Shown here in pieces: positions 41,447 to 53,091 of a stretch of 64,000 nt of DNA. The position numbers and the translations under genes were made by a program. This DNA is from Rhizobium leguminosarum (lineage in GTDB: Bacteria; Pseudomonadota; Alphaproteobacteria; Rhizobiales; Rhizobiaceae): positions 186,001-250,000 of the forward strand of contig NZ_CP016287.1 in NCBI RefSeq assembly GCF_001679785.1, given 5' to 3'. A model generated the notes under the pieces. That model was given only the letters and a program-made list of their open reading frames with translations, was not told where the DNA came from and searched no databases. How positions within the stretch are numbered: position 1 is the first letter of the stretch; every line of letters begins with the position of its first letter.

Positions 41447-44400
41447 TCAGGCTCTTTGCAGCTTCCACGTCCGGATTTCGAACGGCATGATATCGGCGGG
41501 CCCTTTCCGCTCCATCGGCTCTTCCAGAATGTTCAGCGGCTGCGATGCTGCCCATCCGGACGGCGGGTCGAGGGCGAGCCTACCGCGCCGGCCGGCCGGT
41601 TCGTAGAGGCGCAGGATGAGGCCGTCGCCCTCTTCCGCCGGCTTCAGGCCTGAGAACGCGACGGGGATGCCGGTGACCGCAAGAGGCGCGAAAGTGCCGG
41701 CGGAGAGGCCGCTGGATTCTGCCGAGATGAGCGGTTGGTTGAGATCGATCGCCTCGTCGAGAACGCCGCCTTCATGCCAGGCGCCTTCATGCGGCATCAG
41801 CGCATAGGTGAAGCTCTGCTCACCTTCGTCGGCGAGCGGATCCGGATAGATCGGCCCGCGCACGAGGCTCATGCCGATCACGTTGCCGCGGGCGCTATGG
41901 CCGTATTTGGCATTGTTGAGCAGCGCGACCCCGAAATCCGGCTCGCTGATATCGACGAAGCGGTGCGCAACGGCCTCGAACATCGCCTGCTCCCAGGACG
42001 TATTCGTGTGCGTTGCCCGCTCGACGATGCCGAAGGCGCATTCGAACGTCGCCTTGCGGGCCTGCGCGGCGACCGGGTTCAAGGTGCGTAGAAGGGTGCG
42101 GCGGTCATGCCAGTCGATCGTCGTTTCAATGTCGAGCCGCCTGGCGTTGGCCGTCAGTACATAGGTCTGCGTGACACTCGAATTCCGGTAGCGGTAAACG
42201 ACGCGGATTGCCGCGCGGTGCGGCCCGTCATCAACGAGGGTGATACTATCAGGCGCATCAAGGCGGACGGCCTTTTCGGCATAATCCGCGTCGATATCCC
42301 AGGCGTCCCAGTTGCGCGGCTTGTCGGCCGGATAGACCCAGAGCTGATTTGCCGAGCCGTCGACTGCTTCCCGGCCCGTTGCCTTGTGAACGAGGCTTAC
42401 AACCGCCCCGTCCTTGCCGATGCCAACGACGAGGTGGTCGTTTTCGAGACGCTCGGGGTCAGCCTTCAGCTCGCCCGCCGGCTTGAGCGAGCCCTTGTCG
42501 AAGACCGCGACGGACAAGGGCGCGACGAGATCGGCGGCCGCGATGACCGTGCCATCGGAGAGTGTCGCGCTGAGCGGCCTCGGCGCAAGAGACGGATTGA
42601 CGACGACGAGGGCATCGCCAACCCCACCCTTCGGCAGCTTGGCCGACAGCGCTTGCAATCCCCCCACCTGTTCGGCCTTGGCATGTTCGATGACGCCGTC
42701 CAGTTCCTGCTCGGCATCCTGATAGACTTCACGGATGCTCGAGCCCGGCAGAATGTCGTGAAACTCGTTCTTCAGCACAACGCGCCAATCCGCTTCGAGG
42801 CTTTTCGGCCTGTCTGCTCCGAGCATATGCGCCAGCGAAGCGATGGTTTCGGCGGTAATCAGCGCCCGTTCGGCCTGGCGGTGCTTGCGCTTGACGCCGC
42901 TTTGCGACGTCAGCGTGGCGCGGTGCAGTTCGAGATAGATTTCACCATCCCACACCGGAAGGTTCTTTTTCGATGCGGTACGGTGGGCCTGCTCGTAATA
43001 GCTTTTGACGGTGCCCCATCGCGCCTGCGGGATTGCCGGGAAATCGCGCAACTGCACTTCGCGCTCGACCATCTCGGGCGTGACGCCCCCGCCGCCGTCT
43101 CCGTAACCGACAGCCAGCAGCGAAGTATCGTGCTGGGTCTTGCCGCGGAAATTCTTCCATGTCGGCACGTAGCAATCGGGTTGCACGAAGCCGTTATAAC
43201 CCTGCATCGGATTGTCGAACGTGTGGGTCAGCACCCGGCTGCCATCGAGGCCCTTCCACCAGAAGAGATCGGAGGGGATATGGTTGGTCTCGCTCCAATT
43301 GACCTTGATCGTGAAGAAGCTGTCGATGCCGCCCTGTCTCAGGATTTGCGGCAGCGCGCCTGAAAAGCCGAAGCAATCGGGCAGCCAGCAGACCGTATGG
43401 CGTGTGCCGAAGGTCTTTTCGAAATAACGCTGGCCATAGAGAACCTGACGGGCGAGGCTTTCGCCGGTCGGCATGTTGGTGTCGGGCTCAACCCACATGC
43501 CTCCGACGGTTTCCCACTTTCCGTCCGCGACCTTCTTCTTGATGCGCTCGAGAAGTTCCGGGTCTTCCTCTTCCATCTGCGCGTAATAATGGGCGGTCGA
43601 TTGATTGAAGCGGAAATCGTCGGAGCGTTCCATCAGCGACAGCGCCGTATTGAAGGTGCGCCGCATTTTCCGCCGCGTCTCGCGATAAGGCCAAAGCCAG
43701 GCGAGATCGATATGCGCATGGCCCGTCAGCAGCAGTTCTCCATTCGGCGGGAAGCGCTTCTGAAGCTCCTTCAACCGCGCCGTCAGAGCCTCGAAGGCCG
43801 TGGCTGCCGAGCCGCTCTGCTCATCCGTGAGTCCTGCCGGATTAACCTCAAGCTCCGGCAGTTCCCAGATCTTCTGCTGCATGACGGCGCTCGATGTGCG
43901 GGAGATATAGGCTGCCGTATCCGACGGCCAGTCGAGGCTGCGCAAGGCATGCTCGGCGGCATCCATCAGGTGCGGCACAACTTCATGCTCGCTGAGCGCA
44001 TCGATCGCCTCGGCAACCTGCTTCAACAGAAGATGCAGACGGTGAGCGGGACCGTCGAGCCAGATAAACCGGGCCTTGTTGAGCTTGGGCGTTCGATTGG
44101 GCTCGCCGAACGGAAAGCGGGCGACGGTTTCGGTCGCGATCGAGAAGCGCCGGCCCTTCACCGGGAACTCCTGATGATGGGGATCAAGACCGAATGTTTC
44201 CGTCTCGCCGTCGGGATAGTTCAGCGTAATCAGGCTCTCGCCGCCGAGATCGAGCTGCAGGCGAATATCGTCGAGAGGCCACGCCTCCGGCGCTTCAGCG
44301 GTCGCGGAAAAATGCACGACTCCGCGGCGGTGCGGCCAGTCCTGGTGATGTGCCAACGGCTCGCCCTCGAAAGTCCAGCCGTCGATCGCAGCACTTTGTC

Positions 44401-44473
44401 GATCCCGCCAATGGGCCAACTCGGCAATGCGAACTTTGAGACGATCGAGGCGCTGGGCAATGGTCAGAGGCAT
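41447..44473 (-). CDS. Glycoside hydrolase family 38 alpha-mannosidase
   Basis: 1008 residues, normal for the family. The catalytic barrel contains LLTGHAHIDLAWLWPYRETRRK (metal ligands His254 and Asp256) and nucleophile Asp366 in CWLPDCFGFSG. The helical middle domain (about 520-610) and C-terminal beta domains (about 640-1000, with NVIGMSLVRGPIYPD) follow. No signal peptide, so it works on mannosides taken up into the cell. Its promoter shares a 31-bp block with the sugar ABC operon at 47780-54175, which implies co-regulation. Confidence 0.9.
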   Translation of the reverse strand: MPLTIAQRLDRLKVRIAELAHWRDRQSAAIDGWTFEGEPLAHHQDWPHRRGVVHFSATAEAPEAWPLDDIRLQLDLGGESLITLNYPDGETETFGLDPHHQEFPVKGRRFSIATETVARFPFGEPNRTPKLNKARFIWLDGPAHRLHLLLKQVAEAIDALSEHEVVPHLMDAAEHALRSLDWPSDTAAYISRTSSAVMQQKIWELPELEVNPAGLTDEQSGSAATAFEALTARLKELQKRFPPNGELLLTGHAHIDLAWLWPYRETRRKMRRTFNTALSLMERSDDFRFNQSTAHYYAQMEEEDPELLERIKKKVADGKWETVGGMWVEPDTNMPTGESLARQVLYGQRYFEKTFGTRHTVCWLPDCFGFSGALPQILRQGGIDSFFTIKVNWSETNHIPSDLFWWKGLDGSRVLTHTFDNPMQGYNGFVQPDCYVPTWKNFRGKTQHDTSLLAVGYGDGGGGVTPEMVEREVQLRDFPAIPQARWGTVKSYYEQAHRTASKKNLPVWDGEIYLELHRATLTSQSGVKRKHRQAERALITAETIASLAHMLGADRPKSLEADWRVVLKNEFHDILPGSSIREVYQDAEQELDGVIEHAKAEQVGGLQALSAKLPKGGVGDALVVVNPSLAPRPLSATLSDGTVIAAADLVAPLSVAVFDKGSLKPAGELKADPERLENDHLVVGIGKDGAVVSLVHKATGREAVDGSANQLWVYPADKPRNWDAWDIDADYAEKAVRLDAPDSITLVDDGPHRAAIRVVYRYRNSSVTQTYVLTANARRLDIETTIDWHDRRTLLRTLNPVAAQARKATFECAFGIVERATHTNTSWEQAMFEAVAHRFVDISEPDFGVALLNNAKYGHSARGNVIGMSLVRGPIYPDPLADEGEQSFTYALMPHEGAWHEGGVLDEAIDLNQPLISAESSGLSAGTFAPLAVTGIPVAFSGLKPAEEGDGLILRLYEPAGRRGRLALDPPSGWAASQPLNILEEPMERKGPADIMPFEIRTWKLQRA

Positions 44474-44592: not shown

Positions 44593-44623
44593 TTAGATTA
44601 AGTAACTTTGATTTGCCGTCAAG
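44593..44623 (-). promoter_or_regulatory. Alpha-mannosidase promoter/operator, shared with the sugar ABC operon
   Basis: On the minus strand TTGACG (44622-44617), 16 bases, TAATCT (44600-44595). The spacer and -10 box carry an imperfect dyad centred on AAGTTACTT. 28 of 31 bases match 47672-47702 in front of the sugar-binding-protein gene, on the strand that reads into that operon. One repressor, most likely a ROK protein from this region, could silence both. Apart from this site, the 337-base gap 44474-44810 shows no gene. Confidence 0.68.
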
Positions 44624-44810
44624 TGCGAATGAAGTGAACCACTCCGGGTTTGCGGGAGTCCCAGCCCTTCCCGATCGGAAACGGTGATTGGACCTTCACC
44701 GAATAACGAGATCTTGATCGACAACAACAGTTATCGAAACTCCCGTCGGCCCTATTTGACCGAGAATTGCACTGATATGGCAGATTTCAGGCAGCGCTGG
44801 GGAGGGTGGG

Positions 44811-44999
44811 ATGCTTCAAGTCCGCAAATTATTGACAGCCGCGATAGCCGTCATCGTGGTTGCCGTATCGTCGTCATCCTGCACGACGACCTCGAATGAC
44901 TCGATGCAGACCGGCTCGGTTGGATATACCGGCGCCGACTATTCGCTCAGGCCTGCCTGCCGCGATGGATTCGGCAACGATCATCCTTGCAGCTACTAA
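44811..44999 (+). CDS. Small predicted lipoprotein
   Basis: 62 residues: MLQVRKLLTAAIAVIVVAVSSSSC gives a short lipoprotein signal with Cys near residue 24, followed by a Ser/Thr/Gly-rich 38-residue tail with two more Cys (PACRDGFGNDHPCSY). GGGGAGGG just before the ATG supports expression. Function unknown. Small envelope lipoproteins of this shape are frequent in Rhizobiaceae. Confidence 0.6.
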   Translation: MLQVRKLLTAAIAVIVVAVSSSSCTTTSNDSMQTGSVGYTGADYSLRPACRDGFGNDHPCSY

Positions 45000-45210
45000 C
45001 GACCGATAGAGTGAAGCTCCGATTGCCGTGTCGTTTCGAGGGTCTGTTGACGCATTTTGCGGCATTCGCCCCGCCGCGCTTCGTCAGCGCCGTGATAGCC
45101 CTGTTCCAGATTGATAGGACGTTCAGCCGAAAAAGCGGCTGCTAGGCCCGGCTTTCCCATAGCCCGTTGATGAAGTACACAACCGATATGGTGCTCTAGG
45201 AAAGTCAGTC

Positions 45211-46350
45211 ATGCGGTATCTTCGGTCAGGGCCGCGTCGGGTTCACACTCAGGAGGTGGGCGCCCAGCGCGCCAAAATGGTCGGCCTGAGGTCCGGTGAA
45301 ATCGCCGACCGGAATATTCGCGTCATTCTGGAGGCGATCCGCCGCCATGGCCCGCTGACGCGGATGGAGCTTGGCCGGCATTGCGGCCTGACCGGCCCCG
45401 GCATTACCAATATTCTCCGCCGATTGGCTGAGGAGAAGCTTGTCACCTCCAACCGCCGCAATGGCGTTGGCGGCGGGGCCACCGCTACCGAGTTTGCCTT
45501 GCGCCCGGAAGGCGCCTTCTCGATCGGCGTCAAGCTTCGCCAAAAGCGTGGCGAGGCCGTGCTCATTGATCTGAGTGGCCAGGTCCATGACCGAGCCTAT
45601 ATCGAGCTGAACCCCTCAGACAAAGTTGGCCTGCTGCATGCGGCCGTCAGGGATATGGTCGATCGCCACGCGGCAGTGCCGATCATCGGCCTTGGCATCG
45701 CCGCCAACGACTGGACAGAGGAGCAAAGCGATCAGATCGCCGCGATGTCGACGATCGCGCGTCCCTATGTCGAGAACGAGTGTACGGCGAGCCTTCTCGC
45801 CGAACGCACGATCGGCAACTCCGGCAGGGAAGGCGGACTTGCGATGATCATCATCGACGACGACGTTCAGGCCGGCTTTCTCATTCGCGGTATTCCCTAT
45901 TCCGGCGTGCATGGCCGGGCAGGCAGCATCGGCGAAATGCTGACCGGCCCGGACAATGTCCAATTGAACACCGTCGTCGGTTTCGAATCTCTGCGATCAC
46001 GGATCGGCGACCAGGCATTCACCCGCCTGCTGCAAGGGGAGGAATTCTCCTCGCCGTCACTGTCGCAATGGATACGCGAAGCCGCAGGCCATCTGCTCGA
46101 CCCGGTCATCGCTATGGCTGGTTTCCTCGCCCCGAGCGTCGTCATGATCGGCAGCGATCTGCCGCAGGGCGTGATCGAAGCGCTGATCCATCAGCTTTCG
46201 ATCGAGCGGCGCGACACGTCCACGCGACCGCTGCTGACCCCCTGGATTTCGCCGATGAAACCCGCAAGCTTCAGCGGCGGCGGCGTTGCGCTCGGTGCAG
46301 CTCTCCTGCCCTTCCTCAACACTTTGCTGCTGCCGCCTGCTTCGGCGTGA
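45211..46350 (+). CDS. ROK-family transcriptional regulator (NagC/XylR type), first copy
   Basis: Up to 379 residues. The winged helix (about 35-85) is ADRNIRVILEAIRRHGPLTRMELGRHCGLTGPGITNILRRLAEEKLV; a ROK sugar-kinase-like domain follows (FSIGVKLRQKRGEAVLIDLSGQV, ...AGSIGEMLTG..., APSVVMIGSDLPQGVIEALI). The Cys-rich zinc motif of true ROK kinases is not seen, fitting a regulator. The start is uncertain (45211 or ATG 45277). It lies between the mannosidase and the sugar transporter genes and is a good candidate for the repressor of the shared operator. Confidence 0.84.
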   Translation: MRYLRSGPRRVHTQEVGAQRAKMVGLRSGEIADRNIRVILEAIRRHGPLTRMELGRHCGLTGPGITNILRRLAEEKLVTSNRRNGVGGGATATEFALRPEGAFSIGVKLRQKRGEAVLIDLSGQVHDRAYIELNPSDKVGLLHAAVRDMVDRHAAVPIIGLGIAANDWTEEQSDQIAAMSTIARPYVENECTASLLAERTIGNSGREGGLAMIIIDDDVQAGFLIRGIPYSGVHGRAGSIGEMLTGPDNVQLNTVVGFESLRSRIGDQAFTRLLQGEEFSSPSLSQWIREAAGHLLDPVIAMAGFLAPSVVMIGSDLPQGVIEALIHQLSIERRDTSTRPLLTPWISPMKPASFSGGGVALGAALLPFLNTLLLPPASA

Positions 46351-46361
46351 TGCATGTTGCC

Positions 46362-47408
46362 TCAGGCGAGCGCTTCATCGGTGTGGCTGAGATCGGAGGC
46401 CAGCGCCATGTCCAGGACTTTCTGGATATTGGCCGCCCGCCGGAACGAGGGTTCCTGGGTCCTGCCCGCCCGCACGGCCTGGACGAAACGCTGGTAGTTC
46501 GTCTCGACCGGATCGAAGGGCACGTCGCGCCAGGTCGCCGAGTGCACGTCTTCTCCAAGACAGGCGCGTAGCGTCGATTTTCCGGTATCGTAGATCATCT
46601 CGATCGAGCCGGTTTCGCCATAAACCCTGAGGCGCAGCTGGTCCATCTGTCCGGCCGCCGTGCGCGTCGCCTGGATCGTCCCGATCGCACCATTGGCGAA
46701 ATCGACATTCATCGTGAAGCTGTCATTCGCATCGAGATCATATTCGCCGATCTTGTGGCCCGGCGCCTTATCGAAAGTCTTCAGCCGCGCGAAGACATGG
46801 GCGATGTCGAGCCCTGAACCGTAGGATGCGAAATCAACGATGTGGATGCCGATGTCGCCCAGCGCACCGTTGGATCCATGCTTCTTGCTCAGCCGCCACA
46901 GCCATTTGCTTTCGCTCTTCCAGTCGCCCCAGTGACGACCGACCAGCCAGCTTTGCAGATGCGACGCCTCGACATGGCGCACTTGCCCGATTTCGCCGGC
47001 GAGCACCATTTGCCGGCCTTTCTGAAGGGCGGGCGAATTGCGATAGGTGAAATTGACCATGCCGACCTTGCCCGATCGCTCGATGGCCTCGGTCATCTCC
47101 ATGGCCTTGACCGCATCGGTGGCGAGCGGCTTTTCGCAGAAGACGTGCTTGCCGGCGGCGATTGCCTGAAGCGTCGTCGGGTGATGAATGCGGTCGGGTG
47201 TGACGTTCGCCACCGCGTCGAACTCGCCCCAGGCGAGAGCATCCTCAAGGGTTGTGAAATGATTGGCGATGCCATGTTCGGCGCAAAAGGCCGCGAGCCG
47301 CTCCGGGACGACATCGACGCCCCCCACGACGCTGACGCCTTCGATTGCCTTGAAGTTAGCGGCATGCTGGTTGGCCATTCCGCCGGTACCGAGAATGAGT
47401 AGACGCAT
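46362..47408 (-). CDS. Gfo/Idh/MocA-family NAD(P)-dependent oxidoreductase
   Basis: 348 residues from the ATG with GGAGG five bases upstream. The Rossmann N-terminus has LLILGTGGMANQHAANFKAIEG (GxGxxx-type) and the EKPL motif in GKHVFCEKPLATD; the C-terminal domain has ALGDIGIHIVDFASYG with the conserved Asp/His. The family oxidises or epimerises sugars, inositols and related polyols. It is divergent from the sugar transporter operon and convergent (11-base gap) with the ROK gene, so it probably modifies the imported sugar. Confidence 0.88.
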   Translation of the reverse strand: MRLLILGTGGMANQHAANFKAIEGVSVVGGVDVVPERLAAFCAEHGIANHFTTLEDALAWGEFDAVANVTPDRIHHPTTLQAIAAGKHVFCEKPLATDAVKAMEMTEAIERSGKVGMVNFTYRNSPALQKGRQMVLAGEIGQVRHVEASHLQSWLVGRHWGDWKSESKWLWRLSKKHGSNGALGDIGIHIVDFASYGSGLDIAHVFARLKTFDKAPGHKIGEYDLDANDSFTMNVDFANGAIGTIQATRTAAGQMDQLRLRVYGETGSIEMIYDTGKSTLRACLGEDVHSATWRDVPFDPVETNYQRFVQAVRAGRTQEPSFRRAANIQKVLDMALASDLSHTDEALA

Positions 47409-47671
47409 CTTATCCTCCATGGAATTAACTTCCCGCGGCAGTTCAGCCGGGCAAAACCGCACTCGCGCCATCGCAGCCATCCGCGATTGCCTCGTGCTCT
47501 TCTTCAGGAAAATAGTGGTGGATGCGCCGCGCGTGGCGCGGAACGCTCCATCAATTTCGCGGCGCATATCCTTTTCCGGAGATCGATCTCGATTTTCAGG
47601 AACTGTGCGCTAGCTGCTGTTGATTGTCGCCAGCATCTCAACCTCCCAGGTTCTGGCCTCCCAAGCTGTGG

Positions 47672-47702
47672 CTTGACATCAAATCAAAGTAACTTAATCT
47701 AA
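47672..47702 (+). promoter_or_regulatory. Sugar ABC operon promoter/operator, shared with alpha-mannosidase
   Basis: TTGACA (47673-47678), 16 bases, TAATCT (47695-47700), about 80 bases before the binding-protein ATG. The block matches the alpha-mannosidase promoter in 28 of 31 bases, with differences only just after TTGAC and at the dyad centre. The remainder of the 371-base gap 47409-47779 holds no recognisable gene. Confidence 0.7.
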
Positions 47703-47779: not shown

Positions 47780-49078
47780 ATGAAGAGCGCCACCGTCAGC
47801 GCATTTGCGCTGAGCACCATGTTATTTTCAGCATCCGTTTCATTTGCCCAGGAACTTGCCACTAAGGACAGGATCGGCCTAGCCGATGCGCCAAAATCCC
47901 TCGTCGTCCGTTTGACGAACGATAGTCCGAACAATTCGGATCCGGCGATCGCCGAGGGCTACCAGAAGCTCTTCGTCGATTTCATCAAAAAGCATCCGGA
48001 CTGGAAATTGCAGCTGCAATTCATGTCCTCGGACATTGGAACCGAACAGGCCAAGATGCTGGAGCAGGCCAAAGCCGGCAACGCGCCTGACTGCGCTGCG
48101 GTCGACTCCTTCGTTCTTTCGCAGTTCATGGTCAATAATGTTCTTGCGGACTTCACATCGTATTTTTCGAAGGAGGAAGTGGATGACCTGTTCCCCTTCA
48201 TCCGCAGCGGCATCACGGATAAGGACCAGAAGGTCCGCGCCTGGTGGTGGGATACCGACCTTCGTGTGCTCTACCGCAACAAGTCGATCGTGGCGGATGC
48301 GCCGCAGACATGGGACGACCTGAAAAAGGCCGCGCTCGCCTCCACCAAGGAAGGCATGGAAGGCGTTCTCTTCAATGGCGGGCGCTGGGAAGGGACGACG
48401 TTCGACTGGCTCGCAAATTACTGGGCGCTGGGCGGCAAGCTCGTCGACGACTCGGGCAAGCCAGTGTTCGGCGAAGGCGAGAACAAGGAGAAATTCCTAA
48501 AGGCGCTGAATTATTTCAAGGATCTCGTCGATTCGGGTGCCGCGCCCAAGCGCGTCAGCACGATCGCGAATTACGACGATATGAATGCCGCGGCCGCCGC
48601 GGCGACGACGGCTCTCTTCATCGGCGGCAACTGGCAATATGCGCAGCTGAAGGCCACGCTCGACGAGGACGAGTTCAACAACTGGACCTTCTCGCCGATC
48701 CCCGGCCCCAGCGCCGATCAGCGTTCGACCGGCACCGGTGGCTGGACGATCGCCTCCTTCAGCAAGGACAAGGACAAGATCGAGATGCGCGCCAACCTCG
48801 CACGCGAGGTCTATATGGGGCCGGCAAACGCGCTGCAGCAGCAGTTGCCGACCAGGAAGTCGCTGTTCGACAAATATGAGGTCTTCTCCACCGAAGCCAA
48901 CAAGACCTTCGCCGCGGCTCTGGTCGATGGACAGGCACGCCCGGGTGTGCCGATCTATCCTGAAATCTCCAACCAGATCCAGATCATGATGGGCGACGTG
49001 CTCTCGGGGACCAAAAAGCCGGAAGACGCCTTGAATGCCGCCTTCAACGCGGCGCTGGAGGCCTACAAGCGTCTCTAG
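47780..49078 (+). CDS. Sugar ABC transporter periplasmic binding protein (SBP family 1)
   Basis: 432 residues. Signal peptide with cleavage after SFAQE (about residue 24), then KSLVVRLTNDSPNNSDPAI and the family 1 pattern (AVDSFVLSQFMVNNVLADFTSYF, WWWDTDLRVLYRNKSI, GTGGWTIASFSKDKDK). CUT1-type binding proteins capture oligosaccharides or polyols. GGGGAGGAG upstream fixes ATG 47780. First gene of a six-gene operon; with a GH38 and a GH3 nearby, a mannose- or glucose-containing oligosaccharide is plausible. Confidence 0.87.
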   Translation: MKSATVSAFALSTMLFSASVSFAQELATKDRIGLADAPKSLVVRLTNDSPNNSDPAIAEGYQKLFVDFIKKHPDWKLQLQFMSSDIGTEQAKMLEQAKAGNAPDCAAVDSFVLSQFMVNNVLADFTSYFSKEEVDDLFPFIRSGITDKDQKVRAWWWDTDLRVLYRNKSIVADAPQTWDDLKKAALASTKEGMEGVLFNGGRWEGTTFDWLANYWALGGKLVDDSGKPVFGEGENKEKFLKALNYFKDLVDSGAAPKRVSTIANYDDMNAAAAAATTALFIGGNWQYAQLKATLDEDEFNNWTFSPIPGPSADQRSTGTGGWTIASFSKDKDKIEMRANLAREVYMGPANALQQQLPTRKSLFDKYEVFSTEANKTFAAALVDGQARPGVPIYPEISNQIQIMMGDVLSGTKKPEDALNAAFNAALEAYKRL

Positions 49079-49148
49079 TGCTTCCGACCGTGACGGCGCC
49101 TGCCCGCCGGGCGCCGTCGACATTGCGAAACCCCGCATAGAGAAGCCA

Positions 49149-50078
49149 ATGAGCCCCATTGCCATCGAGGCTGACAGCCCGCCTCAAAGCAGAACGTTCA
49201 TGCGCCGTTTCGCCGGTGCGCCCCTGCCCTGGATCATGCCTGTGATCGTAGTCATCGGCATCTTCTATCTTTACCCCGTCATCGACGTTTTCAGGCTTTC
49301 ATTCACCAATGCCACGCTGATCGGCGACAATCAGGACTATACGCTGGGGTCGATCACCAATGCGTTGAGCTCGCCGCAGCTGCCCGACATTCTGTGGGCG
49401 ACCCTGATCTTCGTCGGCGGCAGCGTCATCGGCCAGCAAATTTTAGGTCTTGCGGTCGCCGTCGTGGTTATCCGCGGCGAAAAGCGCGGCCTGTTCGGCA
49501 CCACCATATTGAGGACGACGGCGCTCGTTGCCTGGGTCGTTCCCGGAATTGCCGGCGGCATCATCTGGCAGATGCTCTTTTCCGAAGCGCCTTATGGTGC
49601 GCTGAACAGCATTCTGAGGCTGATGCACATGCCAACGGTCGCCTGGCTCTCCGACCCCGCAATCGCACCGTGGTCTACCCTCATCTCCAACATATGGCGT
49701 GGCACGGCATTTTCGATGGTCGTCATGTATGCGGCGCTGAAGTCGATCGATCCCTCGCTCTATGAAGCGGCCGAGGTCGACGGCGCGACGGCATCGCAGC
49801 AGTTTTTCTTCGTCACGCTTCCGCAGCTGCGCGCGGCAATCCTCGTCAACATGATCCTCATCACGATCCAGACGGTGAATACCTTCGATGCGATCATCAC
49901 GCTGACGGGCGGCGGTCCGGGGCGTGCGACCGAGGTCATCTCGCTCTACGTCTTCAATATCGTCTTTAGAAACTACGACCTGTCCGGCGGCAGCGTGCTC
50001 TCCGTGCTCATGCTGATCATCAGCCTCGGGCTAGCCTTTATCTATGCGTCGTTCCTGCCGAAGGAGGAAGAGCAATGA
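49149..50078 (+). CDS. Sugar ABC transporter permease, MalF/UgpA type
   Basis: 309 residues, six membrane segments, EAA loop YEAAEVDGATASQQFFFVTLPQLRAAI and C-terminal LTGGGPGRATEVISLYVFNIVFRN characteristic of CUT1 permeases. The start MSPIAIEADSP is preferred over a longer open frame antisense to nothing conserved. Overlaps the next gene by 4 bases. Confidence 0.88.
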   Translation: MSPIAIEADSPPQSRTFMRRFAGAPLPWIMPVIVVIGIFYLYPVIDVFRLSFTNATLIGDNQDYTLGSITNALSSPQLPDILWATLIFVGGSVIGQQILGLAVAVVVIRGEKRGLFGTTILRTTALVAWVVPGIAGGIIWQMLFSEAPYGALNSILRLMHMPTVAWLSDPAIAPWSTLISNIWRGTAFSMVVMYAALKSIDPSLYEAAEVDGATASQQFFFVTLPQLRAAILVNMILITIQTVNTFDAIITLTGGGPGRATEVISLYVFNIVFRNYDLSGGSVLSVLMLIISLGLAFIYASFLPKEEEQ

Positions 50079-50917
50079 GTGGACGGACCGGAACGCGGCT
50101 CGGCGATGCCATGAGCTATCTGTTCATGCTGGTGATGTTCGTGTTCTTCGCCGGCCCCCTTACCTATCTCCTGTCGATGGCGATGCGCGACAAGCGTGAG
50201 ATCTATCGCGGCGCGGCGCGGTATATTCCCAACAACCCCACCATCGACAATTTCATCACCGTTTTGAACAACAGCTATTTCCCGATCTATCTCTGGAACG
50301 GCCTCAAGCTTGCCGCCCTCAGCGGACTGGGCGTCCTGATCGTCGCACTGCCCGCGGCATATGCCTTTTCTCGCTTTCAGTTCCGCGGCAAGGGCCTGTC
50401 GATGATGGGGCTGCTGCTTTTTCAGATGATCTCGCCGCTTGTCATCATGGTGCCGCTCTACCGCTACATGAACCGCCTCGGCCTGCTGGATACGCATTTT
50501 GCCGTCGTCATGGTCTATATCGCCCTTGGCGTTCCGCTGGCGACCTGGCTCTTGAAGAGCTCGGTCGACGGCATCCCGCGCAGCCTCGACGAAGCCGCCA
50601 TGATCGATGGCTGCAATCGATTTTCGGTCTTCTGGCGTATCATTCTGCCATTATCGGCGCCGGGCATCGCCTCCGTTTTCATCATCACGGTGATTGCCGG
50701 CTGGTCGCAATTTCTGGTGCCTTTTCTGTTGCTCACGAAAAATGATCTGATGCCGATCGGCGTCGGCATCTTTAACTTCCGCGGCATGCAGACCGACTCA
50801 TCCATCCAGCTGCTTGCCGCCGCCTGCCTGATCGCGGTCGTTCCGGCGATCGTCGCCTTCCTGTCGCTCCAGCGGCTGATCCTCGGTGCGATGACCAGCG
50901 GCGCGGTCAAGGGATGA
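50075..50917 (+). CDS. Sugar ABC transporter permease, MalG/UgpE type
   Basis: 280 residues, six membrane segments, EAA loop LDEAAMIDGCNRFSVFWRIILPLSAPGIASVFI. N-terminal MRDKREIYRGAARYIPNNPTIDNF is the usual CUT1 pattern. Forms the channel with the upstream permease. Confidence 0.89.
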   Translation: MSGRTGTRLGDAMSYLFMLVMFVFFAGPLTYLLSMAMRDKREIYRGAARYIPNNPTIDNFITVLNNSYFPIYLWNGLKLAALSGLGVLIVALPAAYAFSRFQFRGKGLSMMGLLLFQMISPLVIMVPLYRYMNRLGLLDTHFAVVMVYIALGVPLATWLLKSSVDGIPRSLDEAAMIDGCNRFSVFWRIILPLSAPGIASVFIITVIAGWSQFLVPFLLLTKNDLMPIGVGIFNFRGMQTDSSIQLLAAACLIAVVPAIVAFLSLQRLILGAMTSGAVKG

Positions 50918-50952
50918 CGAGTGGAAGCTATGCGCAAGGAAGGATTTCGGGC

Positions 50953-52191
50953 ATGAACCAGACACTCGGCGCCAGGCTCTCCCCGGATCTAACCGGCGCC
51001 AATGTCGAAGATGCAGGTGAACACAACAGGGCCGTCGTCCTGCGCTGCATTCATCGCCAGGCGCCGATTTCGCGGGCCGAAATCGCCAGGCGGACGGGTT
51101 TTACCAAACCGGCGATCGCCCGGATCGTCGATCGCCTGCTGGATGAGGGCCTGATCATGGAAGCCCGCCGGCGGCATGGGCTGAGAGGCCAGCCGGCGAT
51201 CGAACTCGAAATCAATCCGGATGCCTGTTTTGCCATCGGCATCAACATCGATCGCGATCATCTGACGATCCTGGCCGTCGATGCCGTCGGCAATGTCCGC
51301 GCCCGCGTGCATCACGAGAAACGCTTCATCCTGCCGGCGGAATTCCTGCAGCTCACCGCCGATGCGATTTCGCATTTCCAGCGCAGCCGGCTCATCGACG
51401 ACGCGCGCCTCGCCGGTATCGGTCTGGCGATGCCGGATTGGCTTGGTGAGATTTCGCTCCTCGGCAAGCCCGACGCCTATCAGGAATGGACGGCATTCGA
51501 TGTGCGCGCCGCATTGGAGAATCTGACGCAGCATCCCGTCTTCATCGAAAACGAAGCCAATGCCGCAGCCCTTGCCGAACTCGACTACGGATTGGGTGCT
51601 GAAAGCAGCAGCTTCTTCTACATCGCAATCAATCCATGCCCGGGTGGCGGCCTCGTGCTCGACGGTAACGGTCATCGTGGCGCCATGGGCCTCAGCGGTG
51701 AAATCGGCTGGCTGCCGATCGCCGACGGCGGGGACGGGAAGGCCCATAAGGTCCAGCTTCTCGGCGAGATATTTTCGCTGTTTTTCCTTTATGATTTCCT
51801 CGCGCGGCATGGCGTGGAGGTGAGTGTTCCGCATGATCTTCTGACGTTGGATGCGCATGGCAGGCGCCTCGTTTCGCAGTGGCTGAAGGAAATGAGCGCG
51901 CATCTGGCAGTCGCCGTCAAGCATATCGGCATGGTCGTCGACCCAGACGCCGTCCTTGTCGGCGGCCGATTGCCGATTCGCATCGTCGACGAGTTGCTGC
52001 GTTATGTGCACGAGCATCTCGATGCCGAAGACACCAACCTTCCCTCGCTTCATCGCGCCTCGCTCGGAGAGGATGCCTCTGCCATGGGGGCGGCGGTCAT
52101 GCCGATGGCAGCAGCCCTCATGCTCGCATCGGCAGATCCGGCTCAACGCACACGTTCTCCACTCAAGAACATGGACCGTCTGAACAATTGA
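50953..52191 (+). CDS. ROK-family transcriptional regulator, second copy
   Basis: 412 residues from the ATG with AGGAAGGA 8 bases upstream (an ATG at 50914 overlapping the permease stop is possible). Winged helix ISRAEIARRTGFTKPAIARIVDRLLDEGLI; ROK domain with FAIGINIDRDHLTILAVDAVGN, FIENEANAAALAE, HRGAMGLSGEIGWLP. It lacks the clear Cys zinc cluster of glucokinase-type members. Embedded in the sugar operon, it is an autoregulated candidate for the shared operator, in competition with the other ROK gene. Confidence 0.86.
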   Translation: MNQTLGARLSPDLTGANVEDAGEHNRAVVLRCIHRQAPISRAEIARRTGFTKPAIARIVDRLLDEGLIMEARRRHGLRGQPAIELEINPDACFAIGINIDRDHLTILAVDAVGNVRARVHHEKRFILPAEFLQLTADAISHFQRSRLIDDARLAGIGLAMPDWLGEISLLGKPDAYQEWTAFDVRAALENLTQHPVFIENEANAAALAELDYGLGAESSSFFYIAINPCPGGGLVLDGNGHRGAMGLSGEIGWLPIADGGDGKAHKVQLLGEIFSLFFLYDFLARHGVEVSVPHDLLTLDAHGRRLVSQWLKEMSAHLAVAVKHIGMVVDPDAVLVGGRLPIRIVDELLRYVHEHLDAEDTNLPSLHRASLGEDASAMGAAVMPMAAALMLASADPAQRTRSPLKNMDRLNN

Positions 52192-52236
52192 AACGGCCGT
52201 ATGGCCAGGAATTTTGGTGAAGATGGGAGGATTTTG

Positions 52237-53091
52237 GTGAAGATCGGCTTTTACACCTCGACATTCAACGATCGTCCCCTTGAGGAAGTGGTGGATTTCG
52301 CCGCATCGGCCGGGTTCGACGCCATCGAGATCGACGTCGGCGGCCATATCAAGACGCCGGATCGGGTGGAGGCCGCCGTCGCGCTCGCGCGCAGCCGCGA
52401 CCTCTTCGTGTCGTCGATCACCTATTTCGGCAATCAGCTCGATGCCGACCGGGCAAAACGAAAGGCACTTCGCGAAAGGACTGCCGAATTTGCCGGCGCG
52501 ATCGGTGAAGCAGGTGTCCCGATCTTCGTGATCTTCCCGGGCCGGGACGACACGGCAAGCGACGAAGCCAATTATGATGACTTCGCCGACTTCGCCAACG
52601 GGCTGATCGCTGAGACGCAGCCCTATGGCCTCACGTTTGCAATCGAGAACTGGCCGGGTCCGAATGACAATTTCATCGGGACGACGCCGAAAGGATGGCA
52701 GGAGCTCTTTCAGAGGATCAGGGATCCTCGTTTCGGGTTGGAATTCGACCCCTCGCACCTCATCCGCATCGGCGTCGATCCGTATCAGGCGATGGAGGCG
52801 GTGAAGGATCGCATCGCCATCCTTCATGCCAAGGACACGGCAATCGATCCGGAGAGCCTGCAGGCTGTCGGCTATCACGGCAAGGGCTGGTGGCAATACA
52901 AGCTGCCGGGGCTCGGCCTCATCGATTGGCCGAGGTTTCTGCGCCGGGCCTGCGAGGCTGGTTTCGACGGCACGCTGTCGATTGAACACGAGGATGCCGC
53001 CTATGGCTGGCCGGGCAAGGACTTAGGCGCGCGCGAAGACGGCGAGCGCCTCGGCCTCGATTATTTGAGAAATGTCCTGAGCGGACTTTGA
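52237..53091 (+). CDS. Sugar phosphate isomerase/epimerase (xylose-isomerase-like TIM barrel)
   Basis: 284 residues from a GTG start with GGGAGGA 6 bases upstream (ATG 52201 lacks a site). TIM-barrel features: KIGFYTSTFNDRPLEEVVDFAASAGFDAIEIDVGG, AIENWPGPNDNF, LEFDPSHLIRIGVD (Asp/His metal ligands), AILHAKDTAI and LSIEHEDAA. Members isomerise or epimerise sugars and inositols with a divalent metal. The start region holds a 20-bp partial tandem duplication (52211 and 52231). Confidence 0.84.
   Translation: MKIGFYTSTFNDRPLEEVVDFAASAGFDAIEIDVGGHIKTPDRVEAAVALARSRDLFVSSITYFGNQLDADRAKRKALRERTAEFAGAIGEAGVPIFVIFPGRDDTASDEANYDDFADFANGLIAETQPYGLTFAIENWPGPNDNFIGTTPKGWQELFQRIRDPRFGLEFDPSHLIRIGVDPYQAMEAVKDRIAILHAKDTAIDPESLQAVGYHGKGWWQYKLPGLGLIDWPRFLRRACEAGFDGTLSIEHEDAAYGWPGKDLGAREDGERLGLDYLRNVLSGL

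What the first reader, a model, noticed from the sequence alone, without database searches (positions are those of the whole stretch)
44593..47702. A 31-bp promoter/operator is shared by alpha-mannosidase and the sugar ABC operon
The two blocks (44593-44623, minus; 47672-47702, plus) agree in 28 of 31 bases, including TTGAC, the 16-base spacer dyad and TAATCT. They lie 3 kb apart and drive genes in opposite directions. Two ROK regulators nearby are candidates. This links intracellular mannoside cleavage with uptake and defines a new regulon motif.
Basis: partly seen in the sequence, partly recalled or inferred. Interest (0 to 1): 0.74.

Follow-up and report, generated by a model that had tools for sequence, protein, structure and literature searches.

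The report
Shared switch for mannoside uptake genes
Two copies of one short DNA control box probably switch a sugar importer and an alpha-mannosidase on together in Rhizobium, and genomes with this box also carry the same two repressor-like proteins, which may have to work as a pair.

Summary
The two 31-bp blocks are real (28 of 31 bases) and far beyond chance; their core occurs only twice, at up to 3 mismatches, in the 8.57-Mb genome. The same box precedes the importer gene in all 97 loci that were fetched by the ROK2 protein (80 named, 20 from three other families) and hold that upstream. A close GH38 alpha-mannosidase outside the importer operon has its own copy (38 of 38). Copies inside the operon have none (0 of 76), nor do more distant GH38 genes elsewhere (0 of 21). 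So the box is a conserved promoter/operator of an importer plus alpha-mannosidase regulon.

Both nearby ROK proteins accompany the system (112 of 112 genomes in the genus; the same 32 of 397 in an order-wide draw). ROK2 (50914-52191), inside the operon, is the best candidate repressor: its DNA-binding wing is nearly invariant. ROK1 has an eroded sugar pocket, yet is kept even when unlinked. The boldest open reading is an obligate ROK pair reading one asymmetric operator. Binding and inducing sugar are untested.

The parts
44593..44623 (-). Box 1: promoter/operator before the GH38 alpha-mannosidase (CTTGAC-N17-TAATCT, T variant at the centre)
   Evidence: 28 of 31 identity to box 2; box present before 38 of 38 separate GH38 genes that are 82% or more identical to the window's, 32 unique upstreams
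47672..47702 (+). Box 2: promoter/operator before the importer operon (A variant at the centre), 108 bp before the SBP start codon
   Evidence: box before the SBP in 78 of 78 and 19 of 19 loci fetched by ROK2 that hold that upstream
41447..44473 (-). GH38 alpha-mannosidase, 1008 aa
   Evidence: Pfam PF01074, PF09261, PF07748, PF17677; PDB relatives named alpha-mannosidase, best E 1.3e-133
45211..46350 (+). ROK1: wHTH plus degenerate ROK domain
   Evidence: Pfam MarR_2, ROK just at cut-off; modelled fold matches ROK repressors 7rhe and 5f7q; co-occurs with ROK2
46362..47411 (-). Gfo/Idh/MocA oxidoreductase, divergent from the importer; seen in the clade-1 arrangement
47780..49078 (+). Sugar-binding protein (SBP) of the ABC importer
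   Evidence: no Pfam hit at E 0.001; PDB relatives include maltose- and sulfoquinovosyl-glycerol-binding proteins
49143..50078 (+). ABC permease A
   Evidence: PF00528
50075..50917 (+). ABC permease B
   Evidence: PF00528
50914..52191 (+). ROK2: wHTH plus ROK domain, inside the operon; best candidate repressor (the start codon may be some codons downstream)
   Evidence: PF00480 and PF01047; wing invariance
52234..53091 (+). Xylose-isomerase-like TIM barrel (annotated sugar phosphate isomerase/epimerase in R. johnstonii 3841)
   Evidence: PF01261
53114..54175 (+). ABC ATPase, MalK/UgpC type
   Evidence: PF00005, PF17912, PF08402
54278..54303 (+). Terminator-like hairpin after the operon
   Evidence: 9-pair stem; a consensus match only, 9 found in the region against a mean of 7.8 in shuffles

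Best explanation
The block is a promoter with a built-in operator, used twice in this genome. ROK2, encoded in the importer operon, sits on the box between the -35 and -10 elements and keeps both the importer operon (with its own gene) and the separate alpha-mannosidase gene off. An alpha-mannoside entering through the ABC importer, or the mannose that GH38 releases, binds the ROK2 sugar pocket and frees both promoters, so uptake and intracellular cleavage rise together. ROK1, a second ROK protein with an intact DNA-binding fold but an eroded sugar pocket, is a fixed partner of the system whose role is undetermined (co-repressor, competitor or dimer partner). Shown by computation: the box, its conservation, its one-per-transcription-unit logic, and its co-occurrence with both ROKs. 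Inferred: ROK2 binding, repression, the inducer, and the substrate.
For: Box and genes. Genus (148 genomes): 110 of 112 ROK2-positive genomes have a core match at up to 3 mismatches, and the other two (G042, G137) a 4-mismatch form in place; 2 of 36 ROK2-negative genomes have a match. Of 80 named loci fetched by ROK2 protein, 78 hold the SBP upstream and all 78 have the box; of 20 loci from three other families, 19 hold it and all 19 have a box. GH38: 38 of 38 separate copies that are 82-100% identical have a box (25 of these in the ROK2-fetched set); 0 of 76 in-operon copies; 0 of 21 (14 unique) copies of 41-75% identity in another context. ROK2 lies in the operon, and its wing/linker is 93% identical to the window in 53 distant rows against 56% for its sensor; ROK1 38% against 34% in 57 distant rows. 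The glutamate of the ROK GExG motif is kept in all 107 ROK2 rows; the listed ROK1 forms have S, Q, N, G or L there.
Against: No binding or expression data exist here. ROK1 is kept as strictly as ROK2, even about 223 kb away in Aureimonas AU20, so co-occurrence does not single out ROK2; nor does the wHTH proper (58% for ROK2, 56% for ROK1 in distant rows). The RGQPA wing also occurs in the distant ROK protein 7rhe, so its invariance is partly family-wide. The box has no significant dyad, unusual for a homodimer. The stretch between box and start codon is also conserved, so another site could hide there. At up to 3 mismatches the reversed control pattern matches in 31 of 148 genus genomes, so single 3-mismatch hits count only where their place was read. 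G041, G045 and G096 keep box, importer and both ROKs while their GH38 has no box. ROK2 has W where the ROK ExGH motif has H (GEIGW in 100 of 107 rows; motif recalled).
Confidence: 0.66

Rival explanations
1. ROK1 and ROK2 act together on the box, as a heteromer or as two proteins on one asymmetric operator, ROK2 sensing the sugar and ROK1 supplying a second DNA-reading head.
For: Co-occurrence: the same 32 of 397 genomes in the order draw (26 outside the genus), and 112 of 112 in the genus with only two truncated ROK1 matches among 36 ROK2-negative genomes. Kept when unlinked. Asymmetric box. ROK1 pocket eroded but wHTH fold intact. Pairwise distances of the two proteins correlate at 0.96.
Against: Co-inheritance of any two genes of one locus gives such a correlation; no interaction data; the asymmetry could come from an overlapping -10 element. 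The two proteins share only 24% identity, so dimerisation is not obvious.
Confidence: 0.25
2. ROK1 alone is the repressor of the box; ROK2 regulates something else.
For: In several clade-1 genomes ROK1 is divergent from GH38 with the box about 80 bp before it, as for an autoregulated gene.
Against: Where ROK1 lies away from GH38 (L116/L117, L118/L119, L121/L122, L123/L124) the box is at GH38 and none is listed before ROK1. Its wing diverges (38%) while the box stays, and its sugar motifs are eroded.
Confidence: 0.12
3. The box is only a strong promoter, or the site of an unrelated global regulator.
For: CTTGAC-N17 layout resembles a housekeeping promoter (recalled); an R. etli study reports a cTTGAc-N16-cnATAA promoter motif (one passage of PMC4167512 seen).
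Against: Two copies in this genome and usually one or two per genome in the genus; absence with the ROK pair. The inner 15-20 bp stay conserved in two other families although CTTGAC does not.
Confidence: 0.05
4. The two boxes are alike only because of a recent duplication in this strain.
For: They are 28 of 31 identical and 3 kb apart.
Against: The pair is kept across the genus, also unlinked: read in G038 (130 kb apart), G016 (464 kb), G004 and G014 (separate contigs); by match positions only in G109 (485 kb) and G080 (783 kb). Centre variants persist: 12 of 13 distinct GH38 sites have T, 5 of 6 distinct clade-1 SBP sites have A.
Confidence: 0.02

Closest known systems
ROK-family repressors of sugar genes (Mlc, NagC, Lmo0178, XylR)
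   Same: wHTH plus ROK domain; fold match of ROK1 to 7rhe, 5f7q (Lmo0178 on operator) and 1z6r (Mlc); sequence match of ROK2 to the same set.
   Different: Two ROK proteins per system, one with an eroded pocket. No cysteine zinc motif in the 11 ROK2 rows read (the motif itself is recalled). The box is asymmetric.
RokB of Streptomyces coelicolor
   Same: A ROK regulator with A-rich sites, two of which are said to contain no perfect inverted repeat (passages of PMC4856308 seen).
   Different: 28-bp sites, another host and other target genes; the passages seen describe a single ROK protein.
CUT1 sugar importer with an adjacent mannosidase gene in Sinorhizobium meliloti (SMc04255-SMc04259)
   Same: A sugar ABC importer next to a mannosidase gene (passages of PMC3454389 seen).
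   Different: Annotated there as a putative beta-mannosidase; the binding protein bound beta-diglucosides; the term ROK does not occur in that text.

Membership tests
ROK regulator (ROK2) | N-terminal wHTH and C-terminal ROK domain | tested here: met
   PF01047 and PF13412 above cut-off, PF00480 83.8 bits against cut-off 22.9
ROK regulator (ROK1) | N-terminal wHTH and C-terminal ROK domain | tested here: met
   MarR_2 30.3 bits against 27; ROK 22.9 at cut-off 22.9; model mean pLDDT 79.7 and Foldseek E 1e-23 to 1e-18 to ROK repressors
Mlc/NagC-type ROK repressor | Cysteine zinc motif after the ExGH motif (recalled) | tested here: not met
   No cysteine in that stretch in any of the 11 ROK2 rows
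Mlc/NagC-type ROK repressor | Dyad-symmetric operator (recalled; not required of all ROK regulators) | tested here: not met
   Dyads of the window's two sites are reached by 275 and 155 of 300 shuffles; over the 49 distinct sites the fewest is 21 of 300
ROK regulator of this regulon | Binds the operator at the regulated promoters | not testable with these tools
   Only co-occurrence and conservation available
Glycoside hydrolase family 38 | GH38 N, middle and C domains | tested here: met
   PF01074, PF09261, PF07748, PF17677 above cut-off
Glycoside hydrolase family 38 | Alpha-mannosidase activity | not testable with these tools
   Relatives in the PDB are named alpha-mannosidase
CUT1-type ABC sugar importer | Binding protein, two permeases, MalK-like ATPase | tested here: met
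   PF00528 twice, PF00005 plus MalK OB fold; SBP matches maltose-type binding proteins in the PDB

The most novel reading that the evidence does not exclude
The system is governed by an obligate pair of ROK proteins that bind one asymmetric operator together: ROK2 senses the sugar, and ROK1, whose pocket is eroded, supplies the second DNA-reading subunit. This would be a heteromeric ROK switch, with the asymmetric box as its signature.
Probability: 0.2. Interest if true: 0.72.

Novelty: new variant of a known kind. Interest (0 to 1): 0.5.

Why it matters
It gives a precise, testable regulon: two boxes, two transcription units, two candidate regulators, in plasmid-borne genes of legume symbionts, among them R. 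johnstonii 3841 (pRL12, RL_RS34670 to RL_RS34710). The one-box-per-transcription-unit rule across rearranged genomes is strong evidence that importer and alpha-mannosidase belong to one pathway, which helps assign a substrate to an uncharacterised importer. The fixed pairing of a sensing ROK with a pocket-eroded ROK was not described in any listing of my searches.

Tried and rejected
Aureimonas AU20 first looked like a ROK1-free system that would single out ROK2. A search of its plasmid found ROK1 about 223 kb away, so that argument was dropped.

A 15-bp dyad AAATCA-AAG-TGATTT seemed to be the ancestral operator when reading the distant families. The register analysis and shuffles did not support one common register; the best of 49 distinct sites is still reached by 21 of 300 shuffles. 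Dropped.

A second, ROK1-specific operator was looked for. Upstream of the box nothing is conserved in clade 2a, and ROK1 upstreams show no strong block. The stretch between box and SBP start codon is conserved in clade 1 and partly in clade 2a, so a second site there is not excluded.

Recognition-helix comparison between clades does not separate ROK1 from ROK2. The ROK2 structure model was too poor to use (mean pLDDT 48.5). A protein search with the ROK1 profile gave 203 relatives (120 listed) but no context, and was not used.

G060's 3-mismatch match lies near none of the nine system genes. G121, the other ROK2-negative genome with a match, was not examined. One search listed match places only up to G110. 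In one search, of 140 loci with both ROK hits, 7 with a stop, 1 with short coverage and 26 duplicates were left out, leaving 106 pairs. SBPs under 55% identity were left out: L244 (Qingshengfaniella, 51%), whose SBP overlaps the ATPase gene and shows no box just upstream by eye. L245 (Novosphingobium, ROK2-like 39%) had no SBP hit and no box. The consensus used for the f16/f50 boxes was drawn from those loci, so those scores are partly circular, without it, they score 16 to 21 of 27 against 11 to 14 for the GH38 upstreams. Box-bearing GH38 loci L116, L118, L121 and L123 were fetched because of the box.

The literature searches found no published regulon, box or paired ROK system; only open-licence PMC papers are held, and searches listed only part of their hits.
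Full report
What is there. By composition about 4e-4 such pairs would be expected in a window of this size. The genome holding the window has 8.57 Mb; the 20-bp core AAATCAAAGTWACTTAATCT occurs twice in it at up to 3 mismatches, both with none, and the reversed control pattern has no match.

The genes. Leftwards of box 1 lies a GH38 alpha-mannosidase (1008 aa). Rightwards of box 2 lies an operon of sugar-binding protein, two permeases, a ROK regulator (ROK2), a xylose-isomerase-like TIM barrel and a MalK-type ATPase. Between the boxes lie a second ROK gene (ROK1) and a Gfo/Idh/MocA oxidoreductase. The same region in R. johnstonii 3841 is pRL12 RL_RS34670 to RL_RS34710, with both boxes (locus L210). 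There ROK1 starts about 80 bp from box 1 (L113), while in the window about 590 bp separate them.

Conservation in the genus. Of 148 genomes searched, 112 have a core match at up to 3 mismatches and 112 have ROK2 at E below 1e-100. ROK1 is found in 97 with the window's protein at E below 1e-60 and in 114 with a profile at E below 1e-50. All 112 ROK2 genomes are among the 114 (lists compared by eye). The two extra ROK1 matches (G039, G085) are truncated; around the G039 one SBP, permeases and ROK2 are gone. Of the 112 ROK2 genomes 110 have a core match; G042 and G137 carry a 4-mismatch form in the expected place. Among 36 ROK2-negative genomes two have a match: G060, which lies by none of the nine genes, and G121, which I did not look at. 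The reversed control matches in 31 of 148 genomes, so the 3-mismatch hits of clade 2 are trusted only because the clade-2 loci I read have the match before SBP.

One box per transcription unit. In clade 1, as in the window, GH38 and the importer are mostly separate and each has a box. This holds when they are far apart: read in G038 (130 kb), G016 (464 kb), G004 and G014 (different contigs). In clade 2 GH38 is inside the operon (SBP-PermA-PermB-GH38-ROK2) and there is one box, before SBP. In L109 (G072) GH38 stands after the ATPase at the end of the operon, and again there is one box. Counting all loci read: 38 of 38 separate GH38 genes with 82 to 100% identity have a box (32 unique upstreams), 0 of 76 in-operon GH38 genes do, and 0 of 21 separate GH38 genes of 41 to 75% identity do (14 unique). 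In the set fetched by ROK2 protein alone: 25 of 25 separate GH38 genes have a box, and none of 25 in the operon.

Independent test. Of 80 named loci fetched by ROK2 protein, 78 hold the SBP upstream and all 78 have the box; L170 and L219 are cut by contig ends. Of 20 loci from three other families in the order, fetched by ROK2, 19 hold the SBP upstream and all 19 have a recognisable box, scoring 16 to 24 of 27 against 11 to 14 before GH38 in the same loci; the 20th is cut. Over all loci with an SBP above 55% identity and a readable upstream, 142 (108 unique), 141 score at least 0.7 of the best consensus and the last 0.696. In f16 and f50 CTTGAC is not kept but the inner part is (AAAnCnAnGTGATTTAnTC), so the constraint is not only that of a promoter. 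The system is not common: in a draw of 394 family genomes 16 have the box, in 5 of 109 genera (control 2 of 394), and in a draw of 397 order genomes 32 have ROK2.

Results against. In G041, G045 and G096 the system has a single box, and the one GH38 found in each (71 to 73%) lies in another context without a box. So co-regulation with GH38 is usual, not universal. The sigma-70 scan did not call the box a promoter.

Which regulator. Co-occurrence cannot choose: ROK1 and ROK2 are found in the same 32 of 397 genomes of an order-wide draw, 26 of them outside the genus (lists compared by eye). In Aureimonas AU20 ROK1 is about 223 kb away on the same plasmid, yet kept. ROK2 is favoured for three reasons. 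It is encoded in the operon. Its wing/linker (EARRRHGLRGQPAIELEINP) is 93% identical to the window in 53 distant rows, while its sensor is 56% and its wHTH 58%; for ROK1 the wing is 38%, the sensor 34% and the wHTH 56% in 57 distant rows. And its sugar motifs are better kept: N[DE] in all 105 rows listed and the glutamate of GExG in all 107 rows, whereas ROK1 has VENECT (clade 1), FLDDTE and other forms, and S, Q, N, G or L for that glutamate in the forms listed. That the linker sets specificity in Mlc and NagC is recalled; the paper on their operators is not held. The wing is partly family-wide, being similar in 7rhe. ROK1 is nevertheless a complete ROK repressor fold. The two share 24% identity (BLASTP 72 bits), and ROK2 matches 7rhe with 171 bits (phmmer; programs differ), so ROK1 is not a recent copy of ROK2.

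Mechanism. The most economical reading is a ROK2 repressor sitting between -35 and -10 of both promoters and released by an alpha-mannoside or its product. The unexplained part is ROK1. A fixed partner with an intact DNA-binding fold, an eroded pocket and an asymmetric box leaves open a heteromeric ROK switch. No other conserved block lies upstream of the box, though the leader between box and start codon is conserved and could hold more. I put the heteromer at 0.2. On checking, I lowered the main confidence from 0.68 to 0.66 because of the conserved leader and the partly kept ROK1 motif.

Literature. The listings of nine searches of the open PMC library showed no description of this regulon, box or ROK pair. 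Passages only were seen of PMC3454389, PMC4856308, PMC11387232 and PMC4167512.

Noticed in passing
window 44811-44999: Small open frame between box 1 and ROK1 coding for a lipoprotein-like peptide of 62 aa (MLQVRKLLTAAIAVIVVAVSSSSC...). It lies in a stretch of about 590 bp that is only about 80 bp long in R. johnstonii 3841.
   Followed up: no
L322 (G039:C8:50000-62000): Decayed copy of the locus: ROK1, the oxidoreductase and the TIM barrel match only in pieces, an ATPase match remains, and SBP, permeases and ROK2 are missing. It suggests that ROK1 decays once ROK2 is lost.
   Followed up: partly
L307 to L320 (GH38 in other contexts): A second, box-free GH38 type (63 to 75% identical) in Rhizobium genomes without ROK2 and in G041, G045 and G096; its own partners are unknown.
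   Followed up: partly
L111 and L112 (G110): A fragmented genome that seems to hold parts of two versions of the system: a clade-1 importer with ROK1, and a permease-GH38-ROK2 piece of another clade.
   Followed up: no
L321 (G063:C2:874000-891000): A more distant GH38 (41%) with an ATPase and a ROK2-like protein (35%) nearby and no recognisable box.
   Followed up: no
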